The notes under the pieces are model-generated. The model was not told the origin of the DNA, ran no database searches, and saw only the letters and a list, made by a program, of their open reading frames with translations. From the NCBI GenBank assembly GCA_032433595.1, contig JASWJB010000049.1, positions 115,172 to 179,171 on the forward strand: a stretch of DNA of 64,000 bases, written 5' to 3'. Within the stretch, counting starts at the first letter, position 1. The number at the start of each line of letters is the position of its first letter. A program made the position numbers and the translations under genes. This DNA is from Conoideocrella luteorostrata (taxonomy: Eukaryota; Ascomycota; Sordariomycetes; Hypocreales; Clavicipitaceae). Of the stretch, positions 32,170 to 49,292 are shown in pieces.

Positions 32170-33684
32170 TTATTGATCCTCAGTAGTAATCACATCGGCT
32201 AAGGTTGCTTCTGTGTTCGGGACCTCACCCTCTCCTTCTTTTAGCCCAAGCCAGAGCTGTTCGAAGGGATCAGCGAATTGTGACGCCTCTTTAACTTGAG
32301 GATCTACTTGTTGTCCACTGGATACAGAGTCATCGCTTGCCTCTGGTTTCATCATGCTTTGGTTTGGCGCACAGTACATAAAGTGTGCCGACATCGGCAT
32401 TGGGGCTGGAGTAAGATAGTGGCCATGTTCAAAGCTAGCCGCCGGAGTAGAGATATGCTGTGGCGTAGAGGGCTGGTAAACGTATTGTTGGTGTGCCCAG
32501 GGGGGAGGCAACCTGTAACTATCCATGTGACCATAGTAGTGCAGCGATGACACTAACCCCGCGTTTGCATCTAGATCTGTGATAATGCAATCGTTCTCAA
32601 AAGATCGGATAGCTGCAGCGTCATCCTCAACCAACGAACTTCCAGCGTCCGACATGCCCGCGGACTGCTGGCGATGCTTGTACTCTGACTCCTGTCTTCG
32701 TGTAAGCTAACATTCGCATATCTATGATGTTCTCTACTTACAAGACTATTATCTCTGAGATAGTAGGTAGGCATGGCGGGACTAGGTCTGTGACTCTCAG
32801 CCTTTTCCTGGTCGGAAGAGTTAAGCGACAATGGGAGAAAGTCCTGGGTAGATTCACGAAACTCGGCATCTTCTCGGTCCAATGAGATCAACTCTTGAGT
32901 CTCCGGAGAGCCACTTAGGACTCTCGAACTGGTGCGTCCTACAGGCGTAGGTGACTCTAGAAGCTGCGGATTCTCTTTAGAGCCAATTATCGGGGAACTC
33001 CCGAGATCCTGCATATCCACGACATCAGAATCGGCGTGGTCAGAGAGGTTCATAGCATCGGGCAAGTTAAACTTGGGGTCATCAACCCTCTCGCCAAACC
33101 GCACAGCACGAGTAGTCTCCAAGTCGCTACCGCCGATATCTTTACGGATATATCCACGGATGTCAGGGTCGGCCGTTGGTGCCGACTTTTGTGGCATGGG
33201 CGGAACGAGGTGCCCTTCAGCCACCAGCTCTCGCCGAAGGCGGTTAATGTGTTGACAGATAGCCTGCCCGGACGAGCCAGGATGCAGACGATGAGCAATG
33301 GCATCCCATGGCAGCTGGACCTTGTGTCGGCTGCATTCATATTGCATGTGGAGGAGCAACTTTTCCGCCATTCGAGGACCTTGAGACTTGTCAGGGCAAT
33401 TGTGCAGCTAAACAAAGGGTCATCACATAGAATGCGAAAGACTTACGGTTCCACATGATTAAGCTTCGTCCAGAACAACGCCCATTGCCTTTACGTTGAC
33501 GGTCTGTTGGAAGACGATGGGAATACCTGGCAGTGCGTGGTGTTTCCACATTGTTCCGAGAGCCCGGAGCAGTGGATGGATGCAGCGAAGCTTTTGCAAT
33601 TTGAGTTCTTGTTTGAGTTCGGCGATCCTTGGCAGGGGAGCGCTTTTGCTTGGATACCGCTTTCTTGGTGGAGGCTGAACCCAT
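32170..33684 (-). CDS. Gene A: Myb/SANT-like domain protein, long form
   Basis: Three exons (33447-33684, 32742-33379, 32170-32691) give 465 aa. The N-terminus (residues 1-75) is strongly basic (KKAVSKQKRSPAKDRR). A short helical domain follows at about residues 77-135: a Trp, RMAEKLLLHMQYECSRH, QLPWDAIAHRL, then AICQHINRLRREL. This is the pattern of small fungal Myb/SANT-like DNA-binding proteins, with the last helix as the likely DNA reader. The rest is low-complexity, Ser/Pro-rich and acidic, ending in a Tyr/Pro/Met-rich region (HMDSYRLPPPWAHQQYVY). A transcription-regulator role is inferred. The first intron was set at 67 nt with an AAG acceptor because it alone keeps the frame. First member of the ten-gene cluster. 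Confidence 0.72.
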
Positions 33685-34440
33685 AACGAACAGCGAAATA
33701 AATAGGACGCAATGGGTTCAGATCGTCTCGTGTCTCAAGGGGGATGAAGCTTGGACCAAAGTGAGGGAGAAGTGAATTTGGCTTGTGGTCAATGAGTTGT
33801 GATCAAGTTCAGAAGTGAGAAACGAAAGATTGTGCGAGTGCAACAATCGTCGGGCGGCTGCGGGAAACTCTAAAGCGGTGCTGGCACTGGGACGAATTGG
33901 CAAAGCGATGAAGAGAGTGAGCATTAAGGTCGTGTCGAGCTGGTCACCAAATTCTTAATTTTTTTTTCGAAGAAGCGAATTGATGAGCCGGACCAAGTGA
34001 CACAACTTGGTGCACGCACGATAGGGCAGAAGATTAAAGCGAGCCCTCTCAACGAGCATCTGATGGGAAACGGGTGAAAGAAACGCGTTTGCGATTCACA
34101 GCTGTCACAGCTGGCGAGGCAAGCTTACTTGGTCCGAGTGATTTTCCCACAACCAGCCCAGGCGAGCGAAACAAGACATGTACACAGTGCATGTTCAAGT
34201 GTTGCTGCAGTTCTGTTGATCCAATACATGGCAGTGCACCCTTGGCAGTCAACACTATTCACCAGAGTAGTGCTATTCGGACAGTGCAAAACTGCTATTC
34301 GGGCAGTGGGTGGAGCCTACCAACTGGTTTCAAACTAGCGGCTTAATTCCCACACACCCCCCGCCATTTCACACCACAGGGCTTGGATGCAAGTAAATCA
34401 TCAAAGTAGTCAATTAAATTCCTAAAATACTAAGAATACG
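33685..34440. other. Upstream region of gene A
   Basis: Non-coding. It contains the promoter of gene A and otherwise no recognised feature; the short open frames here are random-looking. Confidence 0.45.
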
Positions 34441-35245
34441 ACCGCTGCCGCAGACCCTGCTGCTTCCAATTCGCTCAAAAATGCGATTGCCGGTGTTTTC
34501 TTCAGAAGTGTACACTTTACGGCCCGCGAGTCATTCCGGCTCCGGCTGCAGCTTGTGCCGCTGCCAAAGCTGCCTCCCAACTAGATGCTGGCTGGGTTGC
34601 AGGAATAACCTCATTAAAATCTATAGATATCGATGATGCTAGGCAGCCAATATTATTCCTTCCCTGCGTTTCTGCCACCATAGTATTTCCACTATATTTC
34701 AATTAGCCGATGGGCTATGCCATGGGTCTCTGCTGCTATTGTGAGGTAGCTGATATGCCACCTTGTCTTGAGTAAGGCTCCTTTGAATGCTTGAATTTAG
34801 CCATTTAATCCTTTTCATTTATTGCTGGTTTTTCCGCCTAATAATAGTAGGATCCTAGATTTATTGGACTTCATCGCTAAGAACCTAAAGGTTAAGAATA
34901 AGTACTTGGTCTCTATAATTTCTTATAAAAATACCTGCCACTTACTAAGGGTTTTAAAAGCCACTAATGCGGGTAAATAAGGTTCTTTATTATATACGCA
35001 TAAGGTAGTGCAAATTAATACAAAAGTGCATAATTTTTCAATAGAAGGTAGCTTTTGCTTGCTTATTTAATAAGCTTTAGGAAGTTAATATGGCTTTTCT
35101 AATAATTTAATAGCATAATAGGAAATTTATGTCGGAAGCACACTAAACTATTCTCTTCTAATATATTCTGTAATTTAACGAATGCCTGTTACAGCAGCCT
35201 TATAGTTATAGTTGGTAACTTTTTTTGTAACTATCTGTTTTGTCG
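34440..35245. repeat. Strongly AT-rich, probably RIP-destroyed transposon
   Basis: TpA-rich DNA with almost no CpA. A fragment on the minus strand at 34517-34620 still reads coding-like (VIPATQPASSWEAALAAAQA) and is GC-richer than its surroundings, as the end of a degraded element gene might be. Family cannot be named. Confidence 0.4.
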
Positions 35246-35249
35246 ACCC

Positions 35250-35800
35250 AAAACGCACACCCAAAACTCACGTATGCCGGAGTCTGACACACAACCAGCA
35301 ACGCTCCGTACACTTCGTAAAAGGTTCTCGCAAAGACCTTCCGTGATTCGTATAGACCTTTCTCTTGCCGATATCAAATGGTCTAACGGTTTGCTTGTCG
35401 GATATCGAGCTGCTATGCGCTTTAACTGAATATAATAAGTAGGGAATGTAAGGCACGAAACACTTAATAAAACCTCTGTCACGATGGGCACTAGATTTAC
35501 CCACTGCGCCAGGAACAAAAAGATCCAGCAGTAGCGGCCAATACCAAATACCCCCAGTATCCAGCTATATAAGGCGCCTATCGGCCAGAGTCACCTAACG
35601 AGCCCCTGACAACTTCGGGGGGGGAACTTTTTTGAATTCTGCGCTACATGCCTGTGTGTTCTGCGAAAGGCATAATCGCACTACTTAGAGCTATAACGTT
35701 CCTTCAGACCAAATTGGTCAAGCCCAAAACTCATTTGAATTCAATCCTGTCACCCAAAAGGATCTATTCCGCCCACACACTGTTTAATATCCTGATAGAC
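35250..35800 (+). repeat. Dispersed RIP-diverged repeat, copy B
   Basis: Second copy of the repeat at 11940-12400, same orientation, about 23 kb away, with an extra stretch (about 35440-35650, including a GGGGGGGG run near 35619) between its two conserved halves. The differences are mostly C/T and G/A transitions. No intact frame. Confidence 0.7.
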
Positions 35801-36944
35801 AGTAAGCAGATTAACTTGACCAGATACTAGGTATAATTTTAGTTCTTTGTGAATAGTCTTAGTCGCGCTGTTAGATCTCTCGCCAAATTGCGATTACCTT
35901 TTGTCAAATAGATTACTTACTGCTGCGTCCAAGTTTGTCAGGAAGCAAGGAACACACTTTGTGCGTGAATTTGAGCACCCCAGGGTAGCTGCGTGGAGTG
36001 AGGATTTTCTTTGACAAGGATGACTTTAGCCAGCCTTGAACAGTGTATTTATAGTTAACGTAGCTCCCCTCAGAATGAAGAGAAATCACGCCTTCTTCGT
36101 GAAGCAAAGTGACACTTTGAGATTTTTGACGTTATCTTTAAATGCCTATTGTTACATGATGCTGACTTCTTGAATACCTGAATCATCTGATCATATGCAA
36201 TTGAACAAGAACACGAGCTCAATTGAGAAACAAACCGATGCCTTACGATTCTGACTCGTACCTCTGACTTACAACTCTGTCCTGTAACTCTGACTACACT
36301 TGTGCGCACCGCGCGAAGTTAGCAACTCCAACGCACGATCCATTGTTCAATTGATACCAAACAGTATCATAAGGTCCTCTGGGCGTTTGGTGTGCTCTTT
36401 TCTTCCTGACAAAAGATGAAGTTAATAATGTTGAGTGCAACGGAAGAAGGTGGCTGCAAGGCCACAAAAATCGAAGAGCAGGTTTCTGTCAAATTTCCGT
36501 GGAGGACCTTCATGAGGCAATGAGCATTGCCGTGATCATGGATTCAGACTTCGGATATTCCTTGTTAGTCGCTTCTGCTGACCTCCTGAATCCCATAACA
36601 TTGTATGTGAATTTGGTGGGGCCAGATGTCAGAGGGAGTGGCATGAAAAAATCTAGGGGTGGTTCGAAAAAGGTGGGTCTTTCATAGGCCATTGCCCGAA
36701 TAGCAATACTCATTCACCATATTATCTCACGAGTCGTTTGTCAATGCAAATCGTTGTCGCGGCATGTGTATTTCCATATACCAAGTGTCTTTTAGAAAGC
36801 ACCTAAACTTTAGTTCTCGTGTTTCCTAAGTTTATTATCATCCCAAAGCTAAGTCACTGAGCCAGAAAGCAAAACTAGATGCATGTCCGCGTCTCCGTCG
36901 TCGCTCCATGTTCCCACCAAATACGTGATGTCATGAACAAGCCC
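35801..36944. other. Intergenic, nothing recognised
   Basis: AT-rich DNA between the repeat copy and the 3' end of gene B. Short open frames (36070-36309, 36499-36687) lack any family resemblance. Confidence 0.5.
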
Positions 36945-37603
36945 TTAAGCTTCACCATCTTCAGAAGTAGGAGGATCTAGCCATCTCCAGTCAGTATTTC
37001 ATCTCAACCAAGACGGATCCCACCTCAGCAAGCCTTCGAAAGGGGGGTGTTGAAGCTTACCAGACAGATTGCAATCGGAATCCTCTTCTTTCTTGACACC
37101 GGCTTTGGAATCCTCCTTGGAATCATCCTTGGAATAATCCTTGGAATCATCCTTGGAATAATCCTCATCCGACTCCTCCTTCTTCACAGACTTGCCTTTG
37201 GCCATCTTTGGCTTCTTGGAGGACCCTGGAAGAGCACGACGAGGCGTAGCTTTGCGCTTCACAGGTGAGGTCTCAGGGGTAATGGGATCAGAGTCAACAG
37301 CCTTTGTAGCGGCCCTGGAGCTACTGACACCGTTGGCCTTGAGCATTCGCTCATATCGCTTCTGGCTGCATGTCATATCAGCGAGGAACTCGGATATGAG
37401 TACAACGTGGAGGTTCAACTCACGCAGCCGCCTTGGAAACAATGCTGAGTTCTTCAGCTACGGCGTTAAAGTCGGGCTATGCAAAACATGTTAATCGCCG
37501 ACGTGATGAAGAATTCGGGATGTCTTACACGGCCATTCGTTGTGTTTCCAATGCAGGAAACGAGGAACTTGACCTGCTCGGAGGGGTCCTGGTTGGCTGG
37601 CAT
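36945..37603 (-). CDS. Gene B: small Myb/SANT-like protein with K/D/S repeats
   Basis: Four exons (37529-37603, 37424-37476, 37061-37365, 36945-36976) give 154 aa. The domain occupies residues about 8-55: SEQVKFLVSCIGNT, PDFNAVAEELSIVSKAAAQ and KRYERMLKANG, matching the three-helix small Myb-like proteins next to it. It is split by introns. A basic tail follows (SPVKRKATPRRALPGSSKK, KMAKGKSVKKEE), then a tandem SKDD/SKDY/SKED repeat and an acidic end (DPPTSEDGEA). Nuclear localisation and DNA binding are inferred. The last exon is only 32 nt, but its junction (GTAAGC donor, GGCTAG acceptor) is in frame and ends the protein naturally. Confidence 0.72.
37104..37168 (-). repeat. Coding minisatellite in gene B
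   Basis: Imperfect 12/30-nt units of GGAAT(C/A)ATCCTT on the plus strand, repeated about five times, encode the SKDDSKDYSKDDSKEDSK stretch. Copy number is likely variable between strains. Confidence 0.75.
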
Positions 37604-38425
37604 GTTGGCGGTGTGGGTAGAAGCTTCTAGATGGGATTCTACCAATTGGTTGAATGAAACACTGTATTGGAGGGGAACCTGTGGCAATGTTGGCAATTGA
37701 TGTGTTGAAGGAGTTTGAAAGAACAGATGCAATCAAACTACAAACATGGATGGCAGGACGAAAAGTTGAGTACGCTTGGTTTGAAAGATCGGTTTTCAGG
37801 AAGGGTGAACGACGTCTGGCCTGGTTTACAATGAAAACAAGGGGTAGCCCTGGCGACGGTTGTAAGTGACGACCAGGTGAGCAAAGACCAAGTTGTCAGC
37901 TGTCAGACGGTCGATAGTGGATACTCCGTGGACAAGAAGTGGCTGGGGCAAAGTCTTGGGGGTGATTGTATCTATCAATTATGAGGACCGGGCTTTCGGC
38001 CCTCGCTTAGCATTTGCAATTTGAAGATAACCCCGTGTCGTGTCGCCTTGTTTGAACGAAAACATTCATGCCGTGTTATAAATGCTCCGAACGTAGAGTC
38101 TTGCAGCAACTCTAAAAGCTAAGCTGTCAATCTCTCTGTTAAGAACTAGGTACTTAAAGCAAATTATGCCATGAGCGTTCTGAAGGTATACCGAAGTCAT
38201 CTTCTAGCTGGAGTAGCATCATGGTGCCATCGCAGGACCACCAGACAAACTACCGTCGTCAACATACCCACCCCATATACCATTGTGAGCAAGCCATAGT
38301 CTGATATCTCTAAATCCCATTATCGGCAAGCCCTTAATCACAAATCACTGCCTTATCGGTCCTCATACCAAGAAGCTCAAGCCCCCCCCCCCCCCCCCTC
38401 GCGTTTTCTGCCATAGCTTGGCTGT
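37604..38425. other. Promoter of gene B and 3' region of gene C
   Basis: Non-coding. Contains a 17-nt poly-C tract close to the gene C stop (listed separately); nothing else recognised. Confidence 0.5.
38382..38398. repeat. Homopolymer of 17 C (poly-G in gene C 3' UTR)
   Basis: An uninterrupted run of 17 C on the plus strand lies 28 nt beyond the gene C stop codon, so the transcript would carry poly-G in its 3' UTR. Such a tract could form a G-quadruplex-like structure and is prone to slippage; length may also be affected by sequencing error. Confidence 0.8.
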
Positions 38426-38800
38426 TCACTCTGCTTCCGAGTCCCCCTCCTCCTCCTGAGCTCCCACTGAAGCATTCGACTCAAAGTGCCTCTTTGTTGG
38501 TGTACGCGGAGCTCTCTTGCTCACTTTCTTTTCGCCAGATGGCCCCATGGGACCGCCCTTCCTGGGGCTTGGACTGGCACCCGTCTGCTCTCGCCATTTA
38601 TGGCGAGCAGACATCTGCCGGAAGCGCTCTTTGGCGCATTTCGAGTCTTTCAGACCCAGTTCCGCCGCGACGTTGTCCCAGTCTGCGTCAGGCTTGCAGC
38701 TCATATTGTTAAAGATAGCTTTGATGAAGCGGAGCTCGGTTTCGGTGAGACCGTTAGGGGTCTCGCCATTGCCCGCAGCCGCACCGGCCTTTCGAGGCAT
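38426..38800 (-). CDS. Gene C: small Myb/SANT-like protein
   Basis: An uninterrupted frame of 124 aa from the ATG at 38800. The domain is at about residues 18-70: TETELRFIKAIFNNM, DADWDNVAAELGLKDS and AKERFRQMSARHKW, a clear three-helix Myb/SANT-like unit with the Trp of helix 2 conserved. A basic tail follows (SPRKGG, EKKVSKRAPRTPTKRH) and an acidic C-terminus (EEEGDSEAE). Nearest in style to genes B, D and E. A nuclear DNA-binding or chromatin role is inferred from domain and tail. No intron lies within the coding part; a 5' UTR intron is possible (CTTAC at 38874). Confidence 0.75.
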   Translation of the reverse strand: MPRKAGAAAGNGETPNGLTETELRFIKAIFNNMSCKPDADWDNVAAELGLKDSKCAKERFRQMSARHKWREQTGASPSPRKGGPMGPSGEKKVSKRAPRTPTKRHFESNASVGAQEEEGDSEAE

Positions 38801-39800
38801 TGTTTCGTTTGGGAGGGCTTTTGTTAAGATTAGACGGGACTCAGTGAAATGAGATGAGAGCGTGGTTGGAGACTTACGTTGACTCGAGAGTAAGCTGTTT
38901 TATGCCAGACAAGCTCTGTGTTTGAGAATATTCGCAATGGATGCGAATATGAGGCTACTGGTGCAAAGTAGATAAAAGCCGAATGCTACAAAAACTTGGA
39001 GGAGTTGTGAATGGGGCGTGGCACTCTGGGTTAAGGAGGGAAGGGCGCGCGTTGGCGGTGGTAGATGCGAGCTGGGCGGTTTGTGTTGAGCTGATGTGCC
39101 TTGTGTATTAGGAAAGTGAACTCAAAGATATGTGCTGTGATTCATCAATGCACCTCGCTTCACCTCACCAAGCTCATATATTCTCGCACAGACCACATCA
39201 AAATTGTCAACAGACCGACATCTCCGTCCCACCTTCTGGGTTGCGGAATTACCCCAGTAAGTTTCACCCGTTCTCTATGAACAACAGAACCCAGTTAAAC
39301 CAGCCAGTCTCAAGCCCGCATAACCTGCAAAGCTGTCCTCATGTCCTGCAAAGCCAATTATATTGGGAGGGCCATAAGAATATGTAGAGTCGATTATGCC
39401 ATTCACTAATAAAACTTGAGCCAATTATCCTACTCTGGTCATGTCAATCTCCCCATCCCCTGCTTAGCCTCATCATCTACACAAGTTGACACTAAAATGC
39501 ATTTGCTCACTCACTCACTCTATGGATGGGTCCATGTCCTCCAACCGCAGCCTACACATCAAAGTGTCTACAATACCTCCACGCACATAGCTTTCAGAAG
39601 AACAATTATGTTATAATCAGAAGCATGTATTTACCGTTGTCCGCTTTCCCTCATAACTAGCATCACTTCGTAGAGTAGCTAGCATCTTGACCATTTCTCA
39701 GCCATTTCTCATATGTCTCGATTCCACCAGAAACAACTGTTAACCCCCAACCTTCTTCTCAATGACTTGCCAAAGTTCCTTCAATCTCGTCAGCAGACCC
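38801..39800. other. Intergenic between genes C and D
   Basis: Holds the gene C promoter and gene D 3' region. No further domain remnant of the Myb-like family was seen. Confidence 0.5.
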
Positions 39801-40383
39801 TTAAAACGGATCGTCATTATCCTCATTCAGAAACGCATTACACTCAGCATGCAGCTCCGCATCCTGATCATACTCTTCGCCATCCTCATCCTCATCCTTC
39901 ACCGCCACCGTCTGATCATCGTCATCGTCGTCCTCACTCTCCTCCTTTTTAGCCGGCTTGCCCCTAGGCTTGCCCTTCGTGCCCGCCCGTCCAGGGGTCT
40001 TGACCACCTTGGTTGGTGTTCCTCCGACAGAGCCGCCGCTTTTCTTGGTCGGGGTCCGAGCCGTGGCACAGGGAGAGGTACCTATAGCAGGAGATTCGGT
40101 AGTAATTCCCAGTTTGCGCTTGACTTGACCGAAGCGGACCTTATAGAGCAACAACAATTCAGCTCGATTCGTGAACACAACACAACCACAGGGCGTTGCA
40201 AAACAAAAGCGACAAGAGAAAGAAACATACCTTGGCGACATCGGCGTTTTTGAATCCCTGCTCGGAGGCAACAGAGTTCCAGTCAATATCCGCCTTGTTG
40301 CGGGTATGCTTGACAATGGCGAAAAAGAACATAGCCTCTTGCGCAGTGGGCTCCTTCTTCTTGGGGGTAATGTCGCCAGCCAT
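39801..40383 (-). CDS. Gene D: small Myb/SANT-like protein with acidic tail
   Basis: Two exons (40231-40383 and 39801-40139) give 163 aa. Residues about 12-65 form the domain: AQEAMFFFAIVKHTRNK, DIDWNSVASEQGFKNADVAK and VRFGQVKRKLG, with the intron exactly before the last helix. The tail has AT-hook-like basic stretches (GRAGTKGKPRGKPAKK) followed by a very acidic end (EDDDDDD, DEDEDGEEYDQDAE). DNA binding is inferred from both elements. The phase-0 junction before the DNA-reading helix differs from the phase-2 junction of the plus-strand members. The ATG at 40383 is the first in the frame. Confidence 0.78.
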
Positions 40384-41089
40384 CACGAACTAGTGGAAAT
40401 TGTAAGCACAAGAAGGGAGCTTTTCGAGTTTGCGCACGAGGGCCGAACCTTGTGCCTTTCAGTGAAAGCGATGTGGTCAAGTGTAGATACGTTTGGCTCG
40501 AGGGAAGTTACTGGAAAATTAGCAGTTTGGCTGCGCAAAGAGGTCGTGAAACAGAAGAAAATAAAAAATTGGAAGAGATGAGGGAGAGACGATTTGGTAT
40601 CGCCCTTCAGGGTTAATGAGGGGGCAATGCAAAGTGAGTTATAAGTGAGTTGTAAGCATGTGTGCGCAGGTGGTTGCAGTTGGGCCATTGCATCGACAAA
40701 CTTACAGCACTCGCTCGAGTGACGCGTTTCCATGCACTCGGTACGATCTATCCAGTCAACAGACCTACACAATTACAACTTTTTCACAGACCTGGAGACA
40801 CAGCAACATTTTAATCATGATAAAAGAAGCTCTGTTACTTTGAAGAAGTCCAGGACAGCAAATAGCTCAACTATCAGTATACAATTTGTAACTAAATCCA
40901 CCAAACGCCAGTCACATCAGAGCCAAGTAGTATCCCTGAATCTGAGCATCAAAGTACCTTCTCATCACCTTACAATTATTTGTTCATCATTAAGTCGTAA
41001 GCAGGCGAAACGTCTACCGCACGCCAGTTTTTTTCCATGATACAATCCACTTTGCCAACCTGTTCTGGAATTCCCGTCTCCATTGGGTA
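40384..41089. other. Intergenic between genes D and E
   Basis: Non-coding; gene D promoter and gene E 3' region. Nothing else recognised. Confidence 0.5.
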
Positions 41090-41882
41090 TCAAAAAAGCT
41101 GAGGGTCGTGGAAACGATCGTTCCACCCTTGGGCACAGTCTATCAGAGACTGAGGGTCACTAATATCGGACAGTTCTGGGCTTTGCAGATCCGCCGAACC
41201 GCTGCTATAGCTGTTCAGGTCGTAAGCAGCCTCAAAGGCTGAAAAGGCAGGGGAGTGCGTGAGACTGCCAGGATCGGTAAACATGTCAGAGTTCGCATCG
41301 AGCATGGCAAATGCGTTAGAGTCTCTGGGCTGTCGCTTCTCGATGACAGCCGGGTGAACTGACATCATGTCGTCGCTGCAGGGCGTGAGAAATCGAGCGC
41401 TGAAATCGTCGTTATCGCCAATGTATGGGGATGCAAGAGAAGCCGGCGAATACTGTGGGTAGCATGTTAGAAGACGGCGCCCTACTTGACGAGGTTCATA
41501 ATTATGCAAGCATACCTGAGCGAGCGATGAAAGGCTCACGCCAGATTCTGACTTGACGATAGCGTCTTTCTTGGATGAGCTGCTCTTTCTTGCAGACTTG
41601 GACACGCGATCCTTTTCTTCGTGGCGAGACCGCTTCTGGGGCTCATGGCCAGTGACAGTAGTCCGGAAACGAGAGTATCGCATTCTGGCGGCATGTCCGT
41701 TCGAAATGGGTTGCAGCAAGACTGGGTCTTGGGCAACTTGATTCCAGTCAATCTTGACGACTGTCAGTACATCAACACACACAAGAACAGAGATGTCACG
41801 GTAGACTAACATCTTTGAGATTCTTTTGCTTCAAGATGGCAAAGAGGAAGCGGGCCATGGCATTATCACCGTTTGGAGACAT
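41090..41882 (-). CDS. Gene E: Myb/SANT-like protein
   Basis: Three exons (41811-41882, 41516-41752, 41090-41452) give 223 aa. The domain starts almost at the N-terminus: ARFLFAILKQKNLKD, then IDWNQVAQ, an 8-residue insertion, and ISNGHAARMRYSRFRTTV, the very conserved third helix of a widespread fungal small Myb-like subfamily. A basic/Ser stretch follows (EPQKRSRHEEKDRVSKSARK), then a Ser/Asp/Pro-rich acidic C-terminus (FTDPGSLTHSPAFSAFEAAY, LQSPELSDISDPQSL) that could be a transactivation region. Exon 1/2 was joined at the phase-0 AAG acceptor, which restores the family text KDIDWN. It is the last minus-strand member; the divergent core begins upstream. Confidence 0.78.
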
Positions 41883-44800
41883 GTTGTTTGTGTTTGTGGA
41901 TGAGAGTGTACTGGGCAAGTTGTCTTTGGATGATGGCCGTCAAGAGACAGTTGGGTGGTGCGAGGCAAAACAAGCAAGACTTTTCGCGGGAGCAAGCTTG
42001 AGTAGATATAGCCTTGATATGAGTGCCACCAGGCAGTCTGTTACGACTAAGCAGCTGCGAAGGCACAAACACACTACAACAAGTAGTGCTAGTATTTCAG
42101 GTGAATCAATGTGAATGGTCGGCGTTACGGTACTTCGGGGAGATAGAGCTGTGAGGGTGACTAAGTGGGCGATGCAACCGGGCCGAGACAGGTTTTAGCC
42201 AGAGTCGACCAGGAGGAAGCAGTGAATCTGATGTCAAGATGGTGTTAGGGATGTTAAGATTGAAAGAAGGTTAAGCTTCCACGGGGCAGCAGTGCTTCAT
42301 GCAAGAGCTGATGAAGGGCAGAGTCAACAGAAGAAGGGTCTTACGGATGGATGAGATAGTCGGAAGGAAAAGTGAAATGGATGCCTTGGGGGAAAGGCTT
42401 GCATTAAAAAGGCATCGATCTCAGGCATAAAAGGCAACGCAACGAATAGACAGTATCTAGCAGAGGGGGGTGGACGGATGCAAGGATCCAGGAACCGACA
42501 GACACAGACCTTGACAGCATGGGGGGTGGTTCAATGACGCCGTGGGACTAGCATCTACTCCGTAGTCGAATCGGCATCCAGCATGCGGTGGCCTGTCTCG
42601 AAATGGGGAGCTCCAAAGGCCGCCGAGGGCGTGGTTGCCTGGCGGTACCGCCATTTAGGGAACAGTGCGGGAGGTTACCAAAGCAAATTGATGCAATCGG
42701 CGGAATCAAGTTGGATGGGTGATGGGGTGGATGGGTCGAAGGGATTGAAGTGTGTGGGAGCGGATGTGCAGATGATGACGGGATTGATGGAGTGGGGGAA
42801 TCGTATGTATTGGTATTGTTCGGAGTAGTACGGAGTACGGAGTAGTGGCAAAAGCTATGCCAGGCAGCCCAGCAGTCCCATCTAGTGCCATATTTTAGAG
42901 GGCGGCCAGTGATAAGCAGCGCCGTCACAGCGCGTAAAGAGTGTGCAGCAGCGCTGCTCCGCTAAGCCCAGCACTATATACGTCCTTAATTAGGCCCCAC
43001 TAACGACTCTGGACTCTGATCCCTGTCAGCCACCGCCAGAGAGCAGCCAGATTGCATGGGGCTTCGTATTGATTGTCGCAAAAAGAAATACCGAGAGTAA
43101 ATATCGTCGAGCGATTGAAATCAGTTAAGAGCGACAAGCTCCGTTCCTTCGAGTGTGCATTCACCTGCTCTGCTGCTCTGGCAACAGGCAGCATACCCTC
43201 TTGTGTCAGGTGGCGTCGTCCCACACACGTCTTTTCTCAAGCAACTCCCGCCAGCACGAACCAAGTGCTCGACTACGGATGAATGACAATCGCAATTCGC
43301 AACATTGACGAGCAAACTTAACGACAGGGATGGCTTTCCGGCCTGGGACTGAAACCCGTGTGACTCATCGTTGGGAACCAAGCCAAGGAAAGCAAAAGAA
43401 AGGGCCAAAGGGGGGTGTGCTTCCATGGCGTCGTAGTTCATTCCGTCAGCCCCGGCAGTACCCCATCATGATGCGCCGCTAAGCCTCGCGCATCCAATTC
43501 AACCAAAGTCATTTCACCAGCAGATAGGGCACAGTTTCAATGCGCGACGAGGGATATAGTCCTTCGTTCGAGTTCTCAAATCAATTAAAGTGTTTTGGTC
43601 CTGGTTTGGTTGGCCGATGGATTGTCGGTGTCCACACAGCAAGGCCAATTGGCAAAGCGTACAACGGAAGGCACCACTTCTCGTTGAGTAACCATTGATA
43701 TCAACCCTTGGCAAGGACCGGCTGAAACTTTTTTTTTTTTTCCTTCGGCCAAGTGGTCCTCATTTGTCAAGGGATGTGTCGGCTGTGAAATGCGAAGGCC
43801 CCAGCATACCCCATCACATCGATGCTAGCTGAGGCAGCGACGGCGTCATCTCAAAAGAGGGGCTGTCGCAGGAATTATCATGACGCTGGATTAAATGCAA
43901 AATATTGTATTTCAATGTTCAGAAACCCTTGGAAGCCCAGGAAAATTTGCGAATACATAAATAGATCACTCAAAAGTCATTGAAGGCTATTTAAAACTTC
44001 TTCATGGTTGTGCAGCGGCTGTATTCGCAATCGCCGTCGTGGAGGGGATGGGGTGAGGTGGTTCGGAGACGCGACGGGCGCGAACTTTTGCGGGACACTG
44101 TGTGACCAGGTTCTCGCCAGGTTGCCACGAACTCACGTGAGAGCATTATGGAGGTACCTGGGTACCTGCTGAGTGCACGTTCTGCGCCGCCGCCTGCGCG
44201 TCTGGTCTGTGTCGCCTCCCCCTCGCCGTACAGAGAATTGGAGGCTGGCACTCGACTTTGGCTGCTGGCCGAACTGACTAATGTGCAAACCATGGAGCAT
44301 CATTCCGCCGCTTCTATTGCATCTTACACCGCCACATGGAGCCACTTGACGTCGGTGGTTCTACAGATGCATTTGTCATCCAGATTTTGCGAGATTCTGA
44401 TTGAAGATTGAAGACAGAGTCAACATGGCCACGAGGAAGAAGGAATGACAGTGGCGGTTTGTTGCTGTTGCTGCTGTCACCTGCAAAGTCGCGAACATGG
44501 TGCACTGTTGCTTCGATTGGAATTCCGCAGGCACCAATGGTCAGATCAGACTCGCCAATTAGTTATTCCTCATCGTATTTTGTCATACATGGACCACGGG
44601 CAGGTTTCGGCCTGGCATCATTTTTAACAGTAAGGGTAAAGTTTGTCGCCGAGCCGTGGTGCACAACCAGACCTCTCACAGACTCACAACCGGGCGATTT
44701 TCCCAGGATAGAGCGGGTAAACGCCGTTTCAACATCGGCTAAGTCCATGCATCAGCGTTTGCTAAGGCTACCTACCCGTCCGCGTACACATCGAGAACCC

Positions 44801-45190
44801 GGTGGGAAACGGCCGGACGGGTCTATTTGTTCTCAAACAACTTATTGTACCGTTCGCTTGCGTTTACTTCTTATTGTCATCTCCGCAAGGCTCAAAGACT
44901 ATCAATAAGATCGCCAACGTGCAGTTGTGCAACATGCCCGCGGGCCGGAAGATATGATATTCCGCATTCCACCCCGACACATGCCTGTCCCAGCCACCAC
45001 TCGCACGGGCCATGCGCGTGTTGTCCAACCGCCCATACCCCCTTTGCCATTATCACACTACCATTTTTCCCATTGTATTCAGCCGAGCACTTAACACGGC
45101 CTATCCGCGAAACGCGCAGGAACTAAGTTACCTCCAATATCCCGACTTACACAAGAGTTCGTCCTGTCCCCACTGGTCTCTCAGTTCATA
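41883..45190. other. Gene-free divergent core of the Myb-like cluster
   Basis: About 3.3 kb between gene E (minus) and gene F (plus), so it contains both promoters. Open frames (for example 44408-44908, 166 codons) look random: extreme Ser/Arg/Leu composition and no domain. A TACGGAGTA cluster is at 42821-42845 and a T13 run at 43729-43741. The GC content is not RIP-like. Confidence 0.5.
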
Positions 45191-46255
45191 ATGAGTAGCA
45201 AGAATTGGAATGATCGTGCGGACAAGGATTTGTTTTTCACAATCTTGTCTGTAAAGAACATAGGTGTCATCAGCGGCGCGGAATGGACCAGCATTGGCAA
45301 CCAAATGCGACTGTTGGGATATGGCTTTACCAACGAGGGATGCCGGTATGTCGTTTTCCCTGCGACGTTCGCTTGAGATGAGCCGCTTGTGTGTGAAATA
45401 CTTCGCTTCTTTTATACTCGCGACCGTAGTTAGCGGTCACACGAGCATGTCGTAGTTGTGTCGCCTGTCATGCGTGGGCTTGGCTGCTTCAAGTGAGGCT
45501 GTATGAGATGAAACTACAGCCGACACTGGACGGATGCGCATTTTCCTTTCATCCACACCTTTTTTCTTCAAGCTTGAGATGGTTCAATAGTGACTCCCAG
45601 TTGACACATCCCTCATAGGCAACATTTCCAAGGTCTTCGCAGAATCCAGAACAAAGCCGAGGCAAATGGCTCCCACCCAGCAAATTCTTGGCAGCCCGAC
45701 CATACCATGAATCCAATCACTAGGCGGCCTGGGCCTGGTAGAGGTCGCCCCAGGAAGCAATCTTCTATGGGAGCAGAAGGCCAGGTGCCAGTTCAAAGTC
45801 AGACAAATGCATCTCCAGCACAGGATCACAGTGTAATCTCCGCCCCAGAACCTGCACAAGAACCTCTGACGCCAAACCTGCAACATGTTCATCAACTGCC
45901 ACATGGCCGACAAGTGCAACAGCAACAACATCCACATCAACATCAACAAGACCTGCAAGACGACAATGTAGCTGCAGAAAATACCGTCGCCGTGCCACAG
46001 CCCAACATCGCTCCAACAGACAGCCCGGCTACTCCCGCTACCGAAGCAGATGTTTCCAGTGCGCCGTCACAGCCCAACGATGGCGACGATGTCGAGGGCA
46101 TCGATGAACATCCAGCCAAGAGGCAGAGACTAGACACGCAGGAACTCGAACGGGATCAACCTCTTGATGATGAAGCAGTTTTGGCTTTGGCGGCACATAA
46201 TGGCGCCGCCGGCCCGGATTACGCCGAAGAGTACGTCGTTGTCCCGACCACTTGA
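45191..46255 (+). CDS. Gene F: Myb/SANT-like protein with AT-hook and Q/H-rich tail
   Basis: Two exons (45191-45345 and 45619-46255; intron 273 nt, phase 2) give 263 aa. The domain is at residues about 5-65: WNDRADKDLFFTILSV, EWTSIGNQMRLLGYGFTNEGC and RQHFQGLRRIQ. The intron lies inside the Arg codon directly before QH. A canonical AT-hook (PGRGRPRKQ) is at about residue 90, then Gln/His-rich low complexity (QVQQQQHPHQHQQ) and an acidic C-terminus. Two separate DNA-binding elements make a chromatin or transcription role likely. The intron is much longer than the 50-90 nt usual here. Confidence 0.75.
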
Positions 46256-46776
46256 GCCTGTCCAAGCTAACACATAGTTCGTAGCTTCAGCTACGGCGAA
46301 GCATGACATATAGCTAGTGGTTTACTCAATAGCCGAAAAAGTGGGTGCGTGCCTCGAGAAACGTCCAACGTGCGGCCGAAAAGGCGCAATGATTGTGTAT
46401 TGTAGTGGTAATGTGATTGATTGGTAGTGCTCAAACAGACAGACATGTACAGTAGCGTTATTGAATAACACGGACTTTGGCCGTGGGGAGGATGAGTTGG
46501 AATACCAGGATTATTATTAACCATGAACATCTGACAGCTGTTATCGCCAAACGAACCGTTTGCACCTGTCCGTGCATGTTGGTAATGACATCCCCTACTT
46601 TGCCATTCCCCCCTGGCCACCATTCGATCTTTTTCACCTTCAACCTGTCATCTGTATTTCTTGGTCGATACCACAGGGTTCGCCGCGCATCTGAAGAACG
46701 CCTCATCTACACCTCATCTGCCACGAACTTGAAATACTCTGGTGAAACAGCCACGCAGCTCAGCCCGCCGTCGAAA
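46256..46776. other. Intergenic between F and G
   Basis: Non-coding; 3' region of gene F and upstream region of exon G. Nothing else recognised. Confidence 0.5.
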
Positions 46777-47059
46777 ATGGCGCCAAAAGCCCACTGGACA
46801 GACGTCACTTTCCTACACGATCTCGTCGTGTCCTTTTATGGAGCTGGAGTCGATGCATCAGCCATGACTACCGATATCCGCAAAGATATCGAGGACCGCA
46901 TGAGACAACTCAACCACGACGTGACCTGGGAGGGTATCCGGTAAGAAATTTAGCAATTGCCTTTCTTTTGGTTCCATGATTTTCAGCACATCCTCGGGCA
47001 GTTTTGCTGCCAAGTGCCGCACACTTCGCCTGCCAGTTGAACGCGCAGCTCACTTTTGA
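46777..47059 (+). CDS. Gene G: Myb/SANT-like first exon, own or shared 3' part
   Basis: Exon 1 (46777-46940) encodes 54 residues of the same domain type: WTDVTFLHDLVVSFYGAG, TTDIRKDIEDRMRQLNHDV and TWEGIR, ending phase 2 inside the Arg codon at GTAAGA. The expected QH..LRR helix and basic tail do not follow. The nearest acceptor (TTTTCAG, 46986) gives a short end (KCRTLRLP then stop at 47059) for a 78-aa protein that lacks a proper third helix. Alternatively exon 1 splices to the exon at 47884, which is in frame and supplies QHIQKLRR plus the tail (141 aa). Transcript data would decide; otherwise G is a decaying copy. Confidence 0.5.
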
Positions 47060-47286
47060 CTCATCTTCGCCTCACCCCTGCTCATCACCAAGTCCGCCCT
47101 TCACCAGGCACAATTTATAGCTGACCTTGCACTCATTCCCCTCACAAAACTGCCCGTTTTCATCTTCTCTTGTTTGCTTTGTTCTCGTCGTCCAGTGAGA
47201 AGCAGCTTTCTCATCCGGCGAAGCTCTACGCTACTGTCTGCCAATTCTCTTCTTTATTTGTTGAGCTGCTCGCTCGTCTTTGCAAA

Positions 47287-47438
47287 ATGTCCCGCCAAGT
47301 GATGAAGTGGGACGAGAGTGTCCATCAAGACATCCTGCTCGCGGTGTTTCAGCATGTCAAGTTTACCCCTGCGCAGCTCGAGCTGATCATGGCTGAGCTA
47401 ACTGGCGCAGGGTACACTTTCTCTGAAAGCGCGCTCCG
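47287..47438 (+). CDS. Gene H: Myb/SANT-like first exon without own second exon
   Basis: A 50-codon exon from the ATG at 47287: KWDESVHQDILLAVFQHV, PAQLELIMAELTGAGY and TFSESALR, the same layout as F, G, I and J. It ends phase 2 inside the Arg codon at GTACTC. From this donor to 47667 there is not one AG dinucleotide, so no splice acceptor is available before gene I. Joining to the acceptor at 47883 is in frame and yields RQHIQKLRR plus the tail (137 aa). The feature therefore behaves like an alternative first exon of gene I. Reading through the donor instead gives a stop at 47487. Confidence 0.55.
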
Positions 47439-47547
47439 GTACTCTATTTCACTTTCTGCTTGCTACTTTCTCGGTTCTTGCGCTTGATCACTCCGTCAAA
47501 TACATCTCCCACAACTGCTTTTATCTTCCCAAAATCTTCCCACCCTC

Positions 47548-47583
47548 ATCAATCATCATCATCATCATCCTCCTCCTCCTCCC
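47548..47583 (+). repeat. Microsatellite (ATC)n then (CTC)n before gene I
   Basis: About six ATC units run into five TCC units. The surrounding 47440-47643 is C/T-rich and free of AG dinucleotides. Probably part of the gene I promoter or a very long polypyrimidine tract for splicing. Confidence 0.7.
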
Positions 47584-47643
47584 TCCTTCGACTTTGAAAC
47601 CTCATCATTGCCAAACACACTGTCCCCCTCTCCCTATCTCGCC

Positions 47644-48228
47644 ATGTCTGTGCACAAATGGGACGAAAGGTCTCACTATGGGCTTCTCCTCGCTCTCCTT
47701 GAAGCGGCTGATCCAAGGAAGGAGATGATCACGATGCTAGCCACGCACATGCAGGCTCAGGGCTTCCAGACTACATTTCACGGCATCAAGTATACTACCA
47801 ACTGCGGATCTCGTTGGGATTCATCGTCCATTGTCATTTGATCAACTGCAGAAAACAAAGTTTTGCTAATTACTCTTTCGCAGCCAGCATATCCAGAAGC
47901 TCCGCCGCGACCAGGGCTCCCCTGAAAAAGGTGCCTCCAAGAGCGCTCCAGCCACTCCTACTAAAGCGACTCCGCAGAAGAGGAAGGCCAGGGCCAGCAA
48001 GGCCAAAAATGCCAAATCCGAAGCCAAAGTTGATGATGGCGAGGATGACGAGCTGCCCTCCACCATCAAGTGTGAAGAGCCGCAGGAGCCGACTCCCAAG
48101 CGTGCCAAGATCGCGAAGGCTGAGTAAGTTGTGGTCACGTATTTATATTAATATATATGCATATATATATTTATTGTTTGACATACTGTCTAACAAACTA
48201 ATGCAGGTCTGAGGGTACGGAATCTTGA
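47644..48228 (+). CDS. Gene I: Myb/SANT-like protein with basic tail
   Basis: Three exons (47644-47789, 47884-48123, 48207-48228) give 135 aa. Domain: KWDERSHYGLLLALLEAA, KEMITMLATHMQAQGFQT, TFHGIK and, from exon 2, QHIQKLRRDQG. The phase-2 junction precedes QH exactly as in F and J. The tail is histone-like: APATPTKATPQKRKARASKA and KNAKSEAK, an acidic patch, then TPKRAKIAKAE. The last intron (GTAAGT, ATGCAG) adds ESEGTES; if it is retained, GAG-TAA stops translation at the junction instead. Exons 2 and 3 could also serve first exons G and H. DNA or chromatin binding is inferred. Confidence 0.75.
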
Positions 48229-48922
48229 ACCGTCTTGTCGAGACGTTTGGAACTGCCTGCAATGTGGGGTTTGGTTTGCTTTAGTTGAGACGGAACAGGA
48301 TGGAAGCTTAGCAAAATGCTCAATGTAGTGGACGAAATGGATCCAGGACATGGGTGGAATGGAACTTATGGACATGATTGCCTAGATACGGAACAACTTA
48401 GGATGCTGGCACTGCATGGTCTGACCCATTGATGCGAATGCATATAAATCACATTTTCGTTGATGAGAGTATGAAACATCAACCACGGACACCAAGTAGA
48501 GTCGCTCATAACATGAACAAATACAACATCCATCGTTCTAACGCTTCGTATTTCACGGTTAGGCTATGTAATCTGCGCAAGACGTTACGTTACAATCGCT
48601 GTTTGACCGTCCCTCAACCGGCGATCAGCCTGCTGCACACTCTTCCAACTCACCATTCGTTCACCTCGGTTAGTCCAGCACTCCGTTTACACTCTCCAAG
48701 CAGCCACCTACCTACCGATCGCCTGTGGTCCCCTGCTACATATACCTCCTATTCTTATCGACTTTTCAATCAGCCCTTCGTTCAGCTTTACTACACCTCA
48801 TCAAGCCACCCTCACTTCCACCACTCTCACGCATCGTTCTCACGCATCGCCATCGCCATCCCCACATCCTCGCTCCCAAACCAAACCCTAACTATTCATC
48901 AACCCTCACACTGAAACCCACT
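48229..48922. other. Intergenic between I and J
   Basis: Non-coding; C/T-rich before the gene J start, as before genes I and GET5. Nothing else recognised. Confidence 0.5.
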
Positions 48923-49292
48923 ATGTCTTCTGCCAAGAAGTGGGAGATCTCCGCAGAGCTAGACCTCTGCATGGCTGTCATCCACACAGGCGGCTCAGTC
49001 GGTTCCTACAAATGGCCCGAAGTCCACGCCATAATGGTGCTACTCGGCCATAATTTTACCAAGGACGCCATCTCGTATGCTTCAGAAACACCCACTGCCA
49101 CCCCTTCTCACCATTAAATCCATTTATCCACTGACCACTTCAAATAGGCAGCACTACACAAAGTCCATCCTGCGTGGCTTCAAGAAACGCCATGGCCTTG
49201 GGTCAGGTAGATTGGCGACATCATTTCCCAGCACTGGGAAGAGAAAGGCTGATGAGCAGGGGGCGGGATCTCCCACGAAGAAGGGCAAATGA
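48923..49292 (+). CDS. Gene J: very small Myb/SANT-like protein
   Basis: Two exons (48923-49074 and 49148-49292) give 98 aa. Domain: KWEISAELDLCMAVIHTG, YKWPEVHAIMVLLGHNF, TKDAIS and, after a phase-2 junction, QHYTKSILRGFKKRHG. The layout equals F and I. The tail is short and basic (GKRKADEQGAGSPTKKGK), suitable as a nuclear localisation signal. With fewer than 100 residues there is no room for an effector domain, so it may act as a competitor or as a small chromatin component. Last member of the cluster; UFD1 follows convergently. Confidence 0.78.

What the first reader, a model, noticed from the sequence alone, without database searches (positions are those of the whole stretch)
32170..49292. 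Mirrored cluster of ten small Myb/SANT-like DNA-binding genes
Ten neighbouring genes or exons (A-J) each carry one short three-helix Myb/SANT-like unit plus a low-complexity charged tail, with no unrelated gene between them. The first five are on the minus strand and the last five on the plus strand. They sit between the housekeeping genes HSP60 and UFD1. Sequences are very divergent, so the array is old or under diversifying pressure. A clustered family of one-domain DNA binders with no effector domains suggests a coordinated regulatory or chromatin module, or a fast-evolving recognition system. I know of no described system of this layout.
Basis: partly seen in the sequence, partly recalled or inferred. 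Interest (0 to 1): 0.9.

Follow-up and report, generated by a model that had tools for sequence, protein, structure and literature searches.

The report
Fungal Myb-like gene, swappable first exons
Inside a cluster of small DNA-binding-type genes of an insect-infecting fungus, three of the supposed genes look like interchangeable beginnings of one gene that share a single ending, a layout familiar from vertebrate detoxification and nerve-cell genes.

Summary
The window is from Conoideocrella luteorostrata (Clavicipitaceae). The cluster of ten short Myb/SANT-like units between HSP60 and UFD1 is real, but it is not ten genes. B, D and E are PF22980 members and C is just below the cut-off. A has an unclassified unit. 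F and J are complete two-exon genes. G and H are first exons only: each has its own ATG and a phase-2 donor at the same place in the domain as I, and neither has a second exon. The exon that completes their helix 3 is exon 2 of I. G, H and I are best read as three alternative first exons of one gene sharing the rest of the recognition helix and the tail. In Metarhizium acridum, Ustilaginoidea virens and Beauveria bassiana, deposited models of one species share exon 2 (77/77, 75/75, 75/76 residues) but begin with different first exons. One protein from an apparently unspliced source shows H joined cleanly to exon 2. G and H form supported clades; G and I also occur in Colletotrichum. Expression of all three isoforms in one organism is not shown. 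The layout resembles UGT1/protocadherin loci, but here the junction lies inside a DNA-binding-type domain.

The parts
32170..33684 (-). Gene A: 3 exons (33447-33684, 32742-33379, 32170-32691), 465 aa, one helical unit (LLLHMQYEC...WDAIAHRLHPGSS...) and a long tail
   Evidence: hand model; no Pfam match; no second copy found
36945..37603 (-). Gene B: 4 exons, 154 aa, PF22980 Myb_DNA-bind_8 plus charged tail
   Evidence: 75.7 bits, cut-off 27
38426..38800 (-). Gene C: 1 exon, 124 aa, PF22980-like, just below cut-off
   Evidence: 23.7 bits
39801..40383 (-). Gene D: 2 exons, 163 aa, PF22980
   Evidence: 28.8 bits
41090..41882 (-). Gene E: 3 exons, 223 aa, PF22980
   Evidence: 40.4 bits
45191..46255 (+). 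Gene F: exons 45191-45345 and 45619-46255, 263 aa, own second exon, phase-2 intron in helix 3
46777..46940 (+). First exon G of the G-H-I gene (own ATG, phase-2 donor GTAAGA, no second exon of its own)
47287..47438 (+). First exon H of the G-H-I gene (own ATG, phase-2 donor GTACTC, no second exon of its own)
   Evidence: joined to exon 2 in P0005
47644..47789 (+). First exon I of the G-H-I gene; the only one in the deposited model found (P0001, QQS21_003681)
47884..48123 (+). Common exon 2: most of helix 3 (QHIQKLRR) and basic/acidic tail
48207..48228 (+). Common exon 3 (last residues of the tail and stop)
   Evidence: identical to P0001
48923..49292 (+). Gene J: exons 48923-49074 and 49148-49292, 98 aa, own second exon, same phase-2 junction

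Best explanation
46777-48228 is one gene with three alternative first exons (G, H, I) and common exons 2-3. Each first exon has its own start codon, encodes helices 1-2 and the first turn of helix 3 of a Myb/SANT-like domain, and ends in phase 2. A transcript begun before G, H or I is spliced from that exon's donor to the single acceptor at 47884; later first exons are removed as intron. The gene would thus make three small DNA-binding-type proteins with the same C-terminal part of helix 3 and the same tail but a different rest of the domain. Shown: no second exon for G or H in the window, same phase and position, one exon 2, conserved kinds and order, and different-start/same-end models within species. 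Inferred: separate promoters, expression of all three isoforms in one fungus, nuclear location, DNA binding, changed target choice.
For: Acceptor lists and joins: of 14 YAG acceptors listed for H only 47884 restores RQHIQKLRR, none of 11 listed for G before 47700 does, and the G-to-47884 join does. Five first-exon but three second-exon modules in the window. Of 58 proteins, 21 hold a G or H module: 8 join it cleanly to exon 2, 2 irregularly, 9 run through an I module first, 2 (G+H) have no exon 2; all 11 multi-module models keep the order G-H-I. Same-species exon 2 identity 77/77 (M. acridum I vs H), 75/75 (U. virens I vs G), 75/76 (B. bassiana I vs G) with unlike first exons. P0005 shows H|exon 2 from a source whose four other proteins here look unspliced. 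H rows one clade 97/91, G rows one clade 100/98. H is the best conserved first exon within Clavicipitaceae. Both modelled isoforms fold as three helices with the junction five residues into helix 3.
Against: No read-level transcript was seen. The deposited models are mostly predictions, and the same-species pairs have different locus-tag prefixes, so they come from different assemblies. The species' own deposited protein found here has only I. The H donor (GTACTC) is poor, the G intron would be 943 nt, and the G leader is not unusually pyrimidine-rich. H looks degenerate in Claviceps purpurea (P0053), where exon 2 also differs at 10 of 110 residues between G- and H-type models (P0040/P0053), so a second copy there is not excluded. 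P0018 has only 17 residues of H. P0005 could come from an intronless copy.
Confidence: 0.8

Rival explanations
1. G and H are remnants of tandemly duplicated genes that lost their second exons and are decaying.
For: No second exon; H looks degenerate in C. purpurea P0053.
Against: G and H are conserved as protein over many species, H more than I within Clavicipitaceae, and each forms a clade.
Confidence: 0.06
2. G, H and I are consecutive parts of one long polypeptide holding two or three half or whole domains, as some deposited models suggest.
For: Nine models run H-I-exon 2 or G-I-exon 2 and two run G-H.
Against: Linkers differ and look like intron or leader sequence; clean G|exon 2 and H|exon 2 joins exist in 8 proteins; in this window unspliced G meets TAA right after its module and unspliced H stops 15 residues after it.
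Confidence: 0.06
3. G and H act as short two-helix peptides made without splicing, for example as dominant negatives.
For: Unspliced G encodes 55 residues ending exactly after the module.
Against: The conserved phase-2 end and clean joins to exon 2 in 8 proteins.
Confidence: 0.04
4. G and H are ordinary separate genes whose second exons I failed to recognise.
For: Second exons of this family are short and variable outside QHxxKL.
Against: None of the 19 G/H proteins with an exon 2 has one specific to G or H; listed acceptors between G and H, and between H and I, give nothing alike.
Confidence: 0.04

Closest known systems
Vertebrate UGT1, GCNT2 and clustered protocadherin loci with multiple variable first exons (PMC1885805, PMC3325998; beginnings of abstracts seen in the listing)
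   Same: Tandem first exons, each with its own start, and one set of common downstream exons.
   Different: Fungal, only three first exons in about 1.5 kb, the junction cuts a DNA-binding-type domain inside its third helix; separate promoters not shown here; unrelated proteins.
Xlr2 microexon switch of Trichoderma virens (PMC11121469, passages seen)
   Same: A filamentous-fungus regulator whose DNA-binding domain depends on exon choice.
   Different: There exon 1 and a microexon switch the domain on or off; here alternative first exons would replace most of the domain.
Pfam PF22980 Myb_DNA-bind_8
   Same: B, D and E are members; same cluster and general kind.
   Different: F-J are not matched above the cut-off; C is just below it.
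Trihelix GT-1 DNA-binding domain (PDB 2ebi, 2jmw)

Membership tests
Variable-first-exon gene (UGT1/protocadherin layout) | Tandem first exons, each with a start codon and a donor of the same phase at the same protein position | tested here: met
   G, H, I all end in phase 2 at the same point before QHIQKLRR
Variable-first-exon gene (UGT1/protocadherin layout) | One common set of downstream exons, none private to the upstream first exons | tested here: met
   one usable exon 2 for G, H and I; 0 of 19 G/H proteins with an exon 2 show a private one
Variable-first-exon gene (UGT1/protocadherin layout) | Transcripts joining each first exon to the common exon | tested here: inconclusive
   8 clean database joins including P0005; no reads examined
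Variable-first-exon gene (UGT1/protocadherin layout) | A promoter before each first exon | tested here: inconclusive
   pyrimidine-rich leader before I and H, not clearly before G; no TATAWA within 350 nt of any of the five
PF22980 Myb_DNA-bind_8 (B, D, E) | Score over the curated cut-off | tested here: met
   75.7, 28.8 and 40.4 bits, cut-off 27
PF22980 Myb_DNA-bind_8 (C, F, G-I and H-I joins, I, J) | Score over the curated cut-off | tested here: not met
   C 23.7 bits; others no match
Classical Myb PF00249 | Score over the curated cut-off | tested here: not met
   no match among the 10 proteins; none of the 20 genome matches lies in the window
Myb/SANT-like fold (G-H-I gene) | Three-helix fold related to Myb/SANT | tested here: inconclusive
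Sequence-specific DNA-binding regulator | DNA binding | not testable with these tools
   inferred from fold and charged tail only

The most novel reading that the evidence does not exclude
Hypocreomycetidae fungi carry an old variable-first-exon regulator (G and I kinds shared with Colletotrichum) in which the choice of start swaps helices 1-2 and the first turn of the recognition helix against a fixed remainder of helix 3 and tail, giving a switchable DNA-binding specificity from one small gene. The first exons of F and J, with the same phase and junction, might also mix with the second exons of I or J.
Probability: 0.35. Interest if true: 0.85.

Novelty: new variant of a known kind. Interest (0 to 1): 0.7.

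Why it matters
If expressed as inferred, this is a compact and conserved variable-first-exon gene in fungi, where only about 6% of genes are said to show alternative splicing (PMC11121469, passage), and one in which exon choice rebuilds the DNA-binding-type domain itself. It gives a very small system for asking how exchanging helices 1-2 alters recognition by a common helix 3. It would also explain why deposited models of this locus disagree (I only, G only, H only, or fused).

Tried and rejected
Rejected: ten separate genes (G and H lack exon 2); classical Myb; decaying copies. Led nowhere: NCBIfam (only matches far below cut-off); PDB by Foldseek (none at E <= 0.001); a viral-contig scan with P0042 in search of a relative's DNA (none); Rfam and tRNA scans of the window (none). 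A relative's genomic DNA and the P0005 contig were not obtained, so exon arrays of relatives are seen only through proteins; no dN/dS was computed and no reads were mapped.

Rows dropped: the tree used 62 rows; modules under 20 bits or under 39 residues were left out (among them P0018 H, P0049 G, P0053, and the I parts of P0007 and P0036), and P0001 was left out as identical to the window's own I. In one search the three module profiles were seeded by hand from the same proteins that they then typed, and the profiles contained the window's own sequences.

Paper searches: 20 of 609 listed; 20 of 43; 8 of 8; 0; 13 of 13; 20 of 162; 20 of 27; 0. In the titles and abstract beginnings listed I saw no variable-first-exon gene of a fungus; absence from print is not shown beyond that. 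Papers: PMC12352038, part 1 of 2 of the whole text; PMC11121469, passages; PMC5294800, one passage; PMC1885805 and PMC3325998, listing only.

Full report
Setting. The window is contig C49:115172-179171 of a 46.4-Mb genome. A protein encoded in it is identical to QQS21_003681 of Conoideocrella luteorostrata, Clavicipitaceae, Hypocreales, a scale-insect pathogen whose genome was annotated with funannotate using UniProt alignments and BUSCO training; the part of the text that I read names no RNA-seq (PMC12352038, part 1 of 2).

What is in the cluster. Hand-built models with GT-AG introns give A-E on the minus strand and F, I, J on the plus strand as complete genes. My model of I, with its 22-nt last exon, equals the deposited protein. 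B, D and E pass the PF22980 cut-off, C falls just short, and A, F, I and J pass no Pfam cut-off. PF22980 was found nowhere else in the genome (5 matches, all in this cluster), and the 20 PF00249 matches all lie outside the window. Such counts are lower bounds because the genome is read exon by exon.

The anomaly. G (46777-46940) and H (47287-47438) have start codons, open frames and phase-2 donors at the point where F, I and J are interrupted too, but no second exon follows. Of 14 YAG acceptors listed downstream of H only the one at 47884, exon 2 of I, continues as RQHIQKLRR; none of the 11 listed for G before 47700 gives anything like it, and the G-to-47884 join does. A profile scan of all six frames finds five first-exon modules, F-J (E 1.4e-18 to 4.9e-11, next 2.7), and three second-exon modules, F, I, J (E 6.5e-8 to 4.9e-5, next 0.96). 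The profiles contained these very sequences, so the result shows only that no further ones were found. Single-protein searches of the whole genome found exon 2 and exons G and H once each.

Relatives. Three protein searches gave 58 proteins. Typing by module profiles gives 21 with a G or H module, P0049 at about 20 bits. Eight join it cleanly to exon 2 through an arginine (H: P0005, P0018, P0027, P0032; G: P0019, P0038, P0040, P0051). Two join it irregularly (P0048, P0049). Nine run through an I module before exon 2 (P0004, P0006, P0007, P0009, P0016, P0020, P0036; P0022, P0045). Two have G and H and no exon 2 (P0008, P0042).

Different start, same end. Within a species exon 2 is the same while the first exon differs: M. 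acridum P0010 (I) and P0018 (H, only 17 residues of it), 77 of 77; U. virens P0017 (I) and P0019 (G), 75 of 75; B. bassiana P0023 (I) and P0038 (G), 75 of 76. First exons of these pairs agree at 2 of 17, 13 of 56 and 12 of 49 residues. Tag prefixes differ within each pair, so these are alternative models of one locus from different assemblies, not observed isoforms. C. purpurea is less clean: the G-type P0040 and the H-like P0053 differ at 10 of 110 exon-2 residues, which strain differences or a second copy could explain. The nearest thing to a transcript is P0005. Its source tag lgn (from memory, assembled public reads) covers four other proteins here, and in all four the residues just before exon 2 belong to no first-exon module, as if intron had been translated. 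P0005 alone shows H joined cleanly to exon 2. An intronless genomic copy is not excluded, though that would itself suggest a spliced RNA.

Age and constraint. A tree of 62 first-exon rows (45 columns, 32 of 58 inner branches open) puts the 13 H rows in one clade (97/91) and the 10 G rows in one clade (100/98); the I rows are not a single clade. G and I occur in Colletotrichum, order Glomerellales, as well as in Hypocreales, so these two kinds seem to predate that split. H was seen in Hypocreales only, Bionectriaceae included. The window's H exon is 87% identical to Moelleriella, 80% to C. maximensis and C. digitariae, 73% to C. citrina and 67% to C. sorghi; the I exon is 57-64% identical to six Claviceps rows; tails in the same rows with exon 2 are 44-53% identical. 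G is 54-64% identical to Claviceps and Ustilaginoidea rows but only 26-29% to Beauveria and Colletotrichum rows, and H is 27% to Beauveria.

How it most likely works. Transcription begun before G, H or I gives a pre-mRNA whose first donor is joined to 47884 (introns of 943, 445 and 94 nt); later first exons go with the intron. The leaders of I and H are pyrimidine-rich compared with the window (0.1% and 1.3% of windows as rich), that of G is not clearly so (12.5%), and the H donor GTACTC is poor. The products would share the tail and the C-terminal part of helix 3 and differ in the rest of the domain, so DNA choice or partners would be expected to differ. Promoters, expression and binding are inference.

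Placement. The layout is that of vertebrate variable-first-exon loci such as UGT1 and protocadherins (PMC1885805, PMC3325998, listing). The nearest fungal precedent met is the Xlr2 microexon switch (PMC11121469, passages). I saw no fungal variable-first-exon gene in the listings named under Tried and rejected. I rate it a new variant of a known kind.

Noticed in passing
45346-45618: The intron of gene F is 273 nt, long beside the other introns of single-start genes here (50-94 nt), and no CTRAY branch motif was found in the last 60 nt before its acceptor.
   Followed up: partly
33685-36944 and 41883-45190: Two gaps of about 3.3 kb inside the cluster hold no gene recognised here; 7 of 13 ORFs of 90 aa or more were scanned against Pfam without a match.
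   Followed up: partly
37095-37170: The tail of gene B is a short repeat of lysine, aspartate and serine (SKDDSKDYSKDDSKEDSK), seen in the model.
   Followed up: no
38380-38400: A run of about 18 G on the minus strand lies just after the stop of gene C.
   Followed up: no
P0053 (Claviceps purpurea): The H-like first exon of this model is strongly altered (about 5 bits to the H profile), so H may be decaying in that lineage or the model may be wrong.
   Followed up: no
P0001, P0004, P0008, P0017, P0019, P0022, P0038 and others: Deposited models of this locus disagree between assemblies (I only, G only, H only, fused), as expected if predictors allow one transcript for a gene with several starts.
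   Followed up: yes
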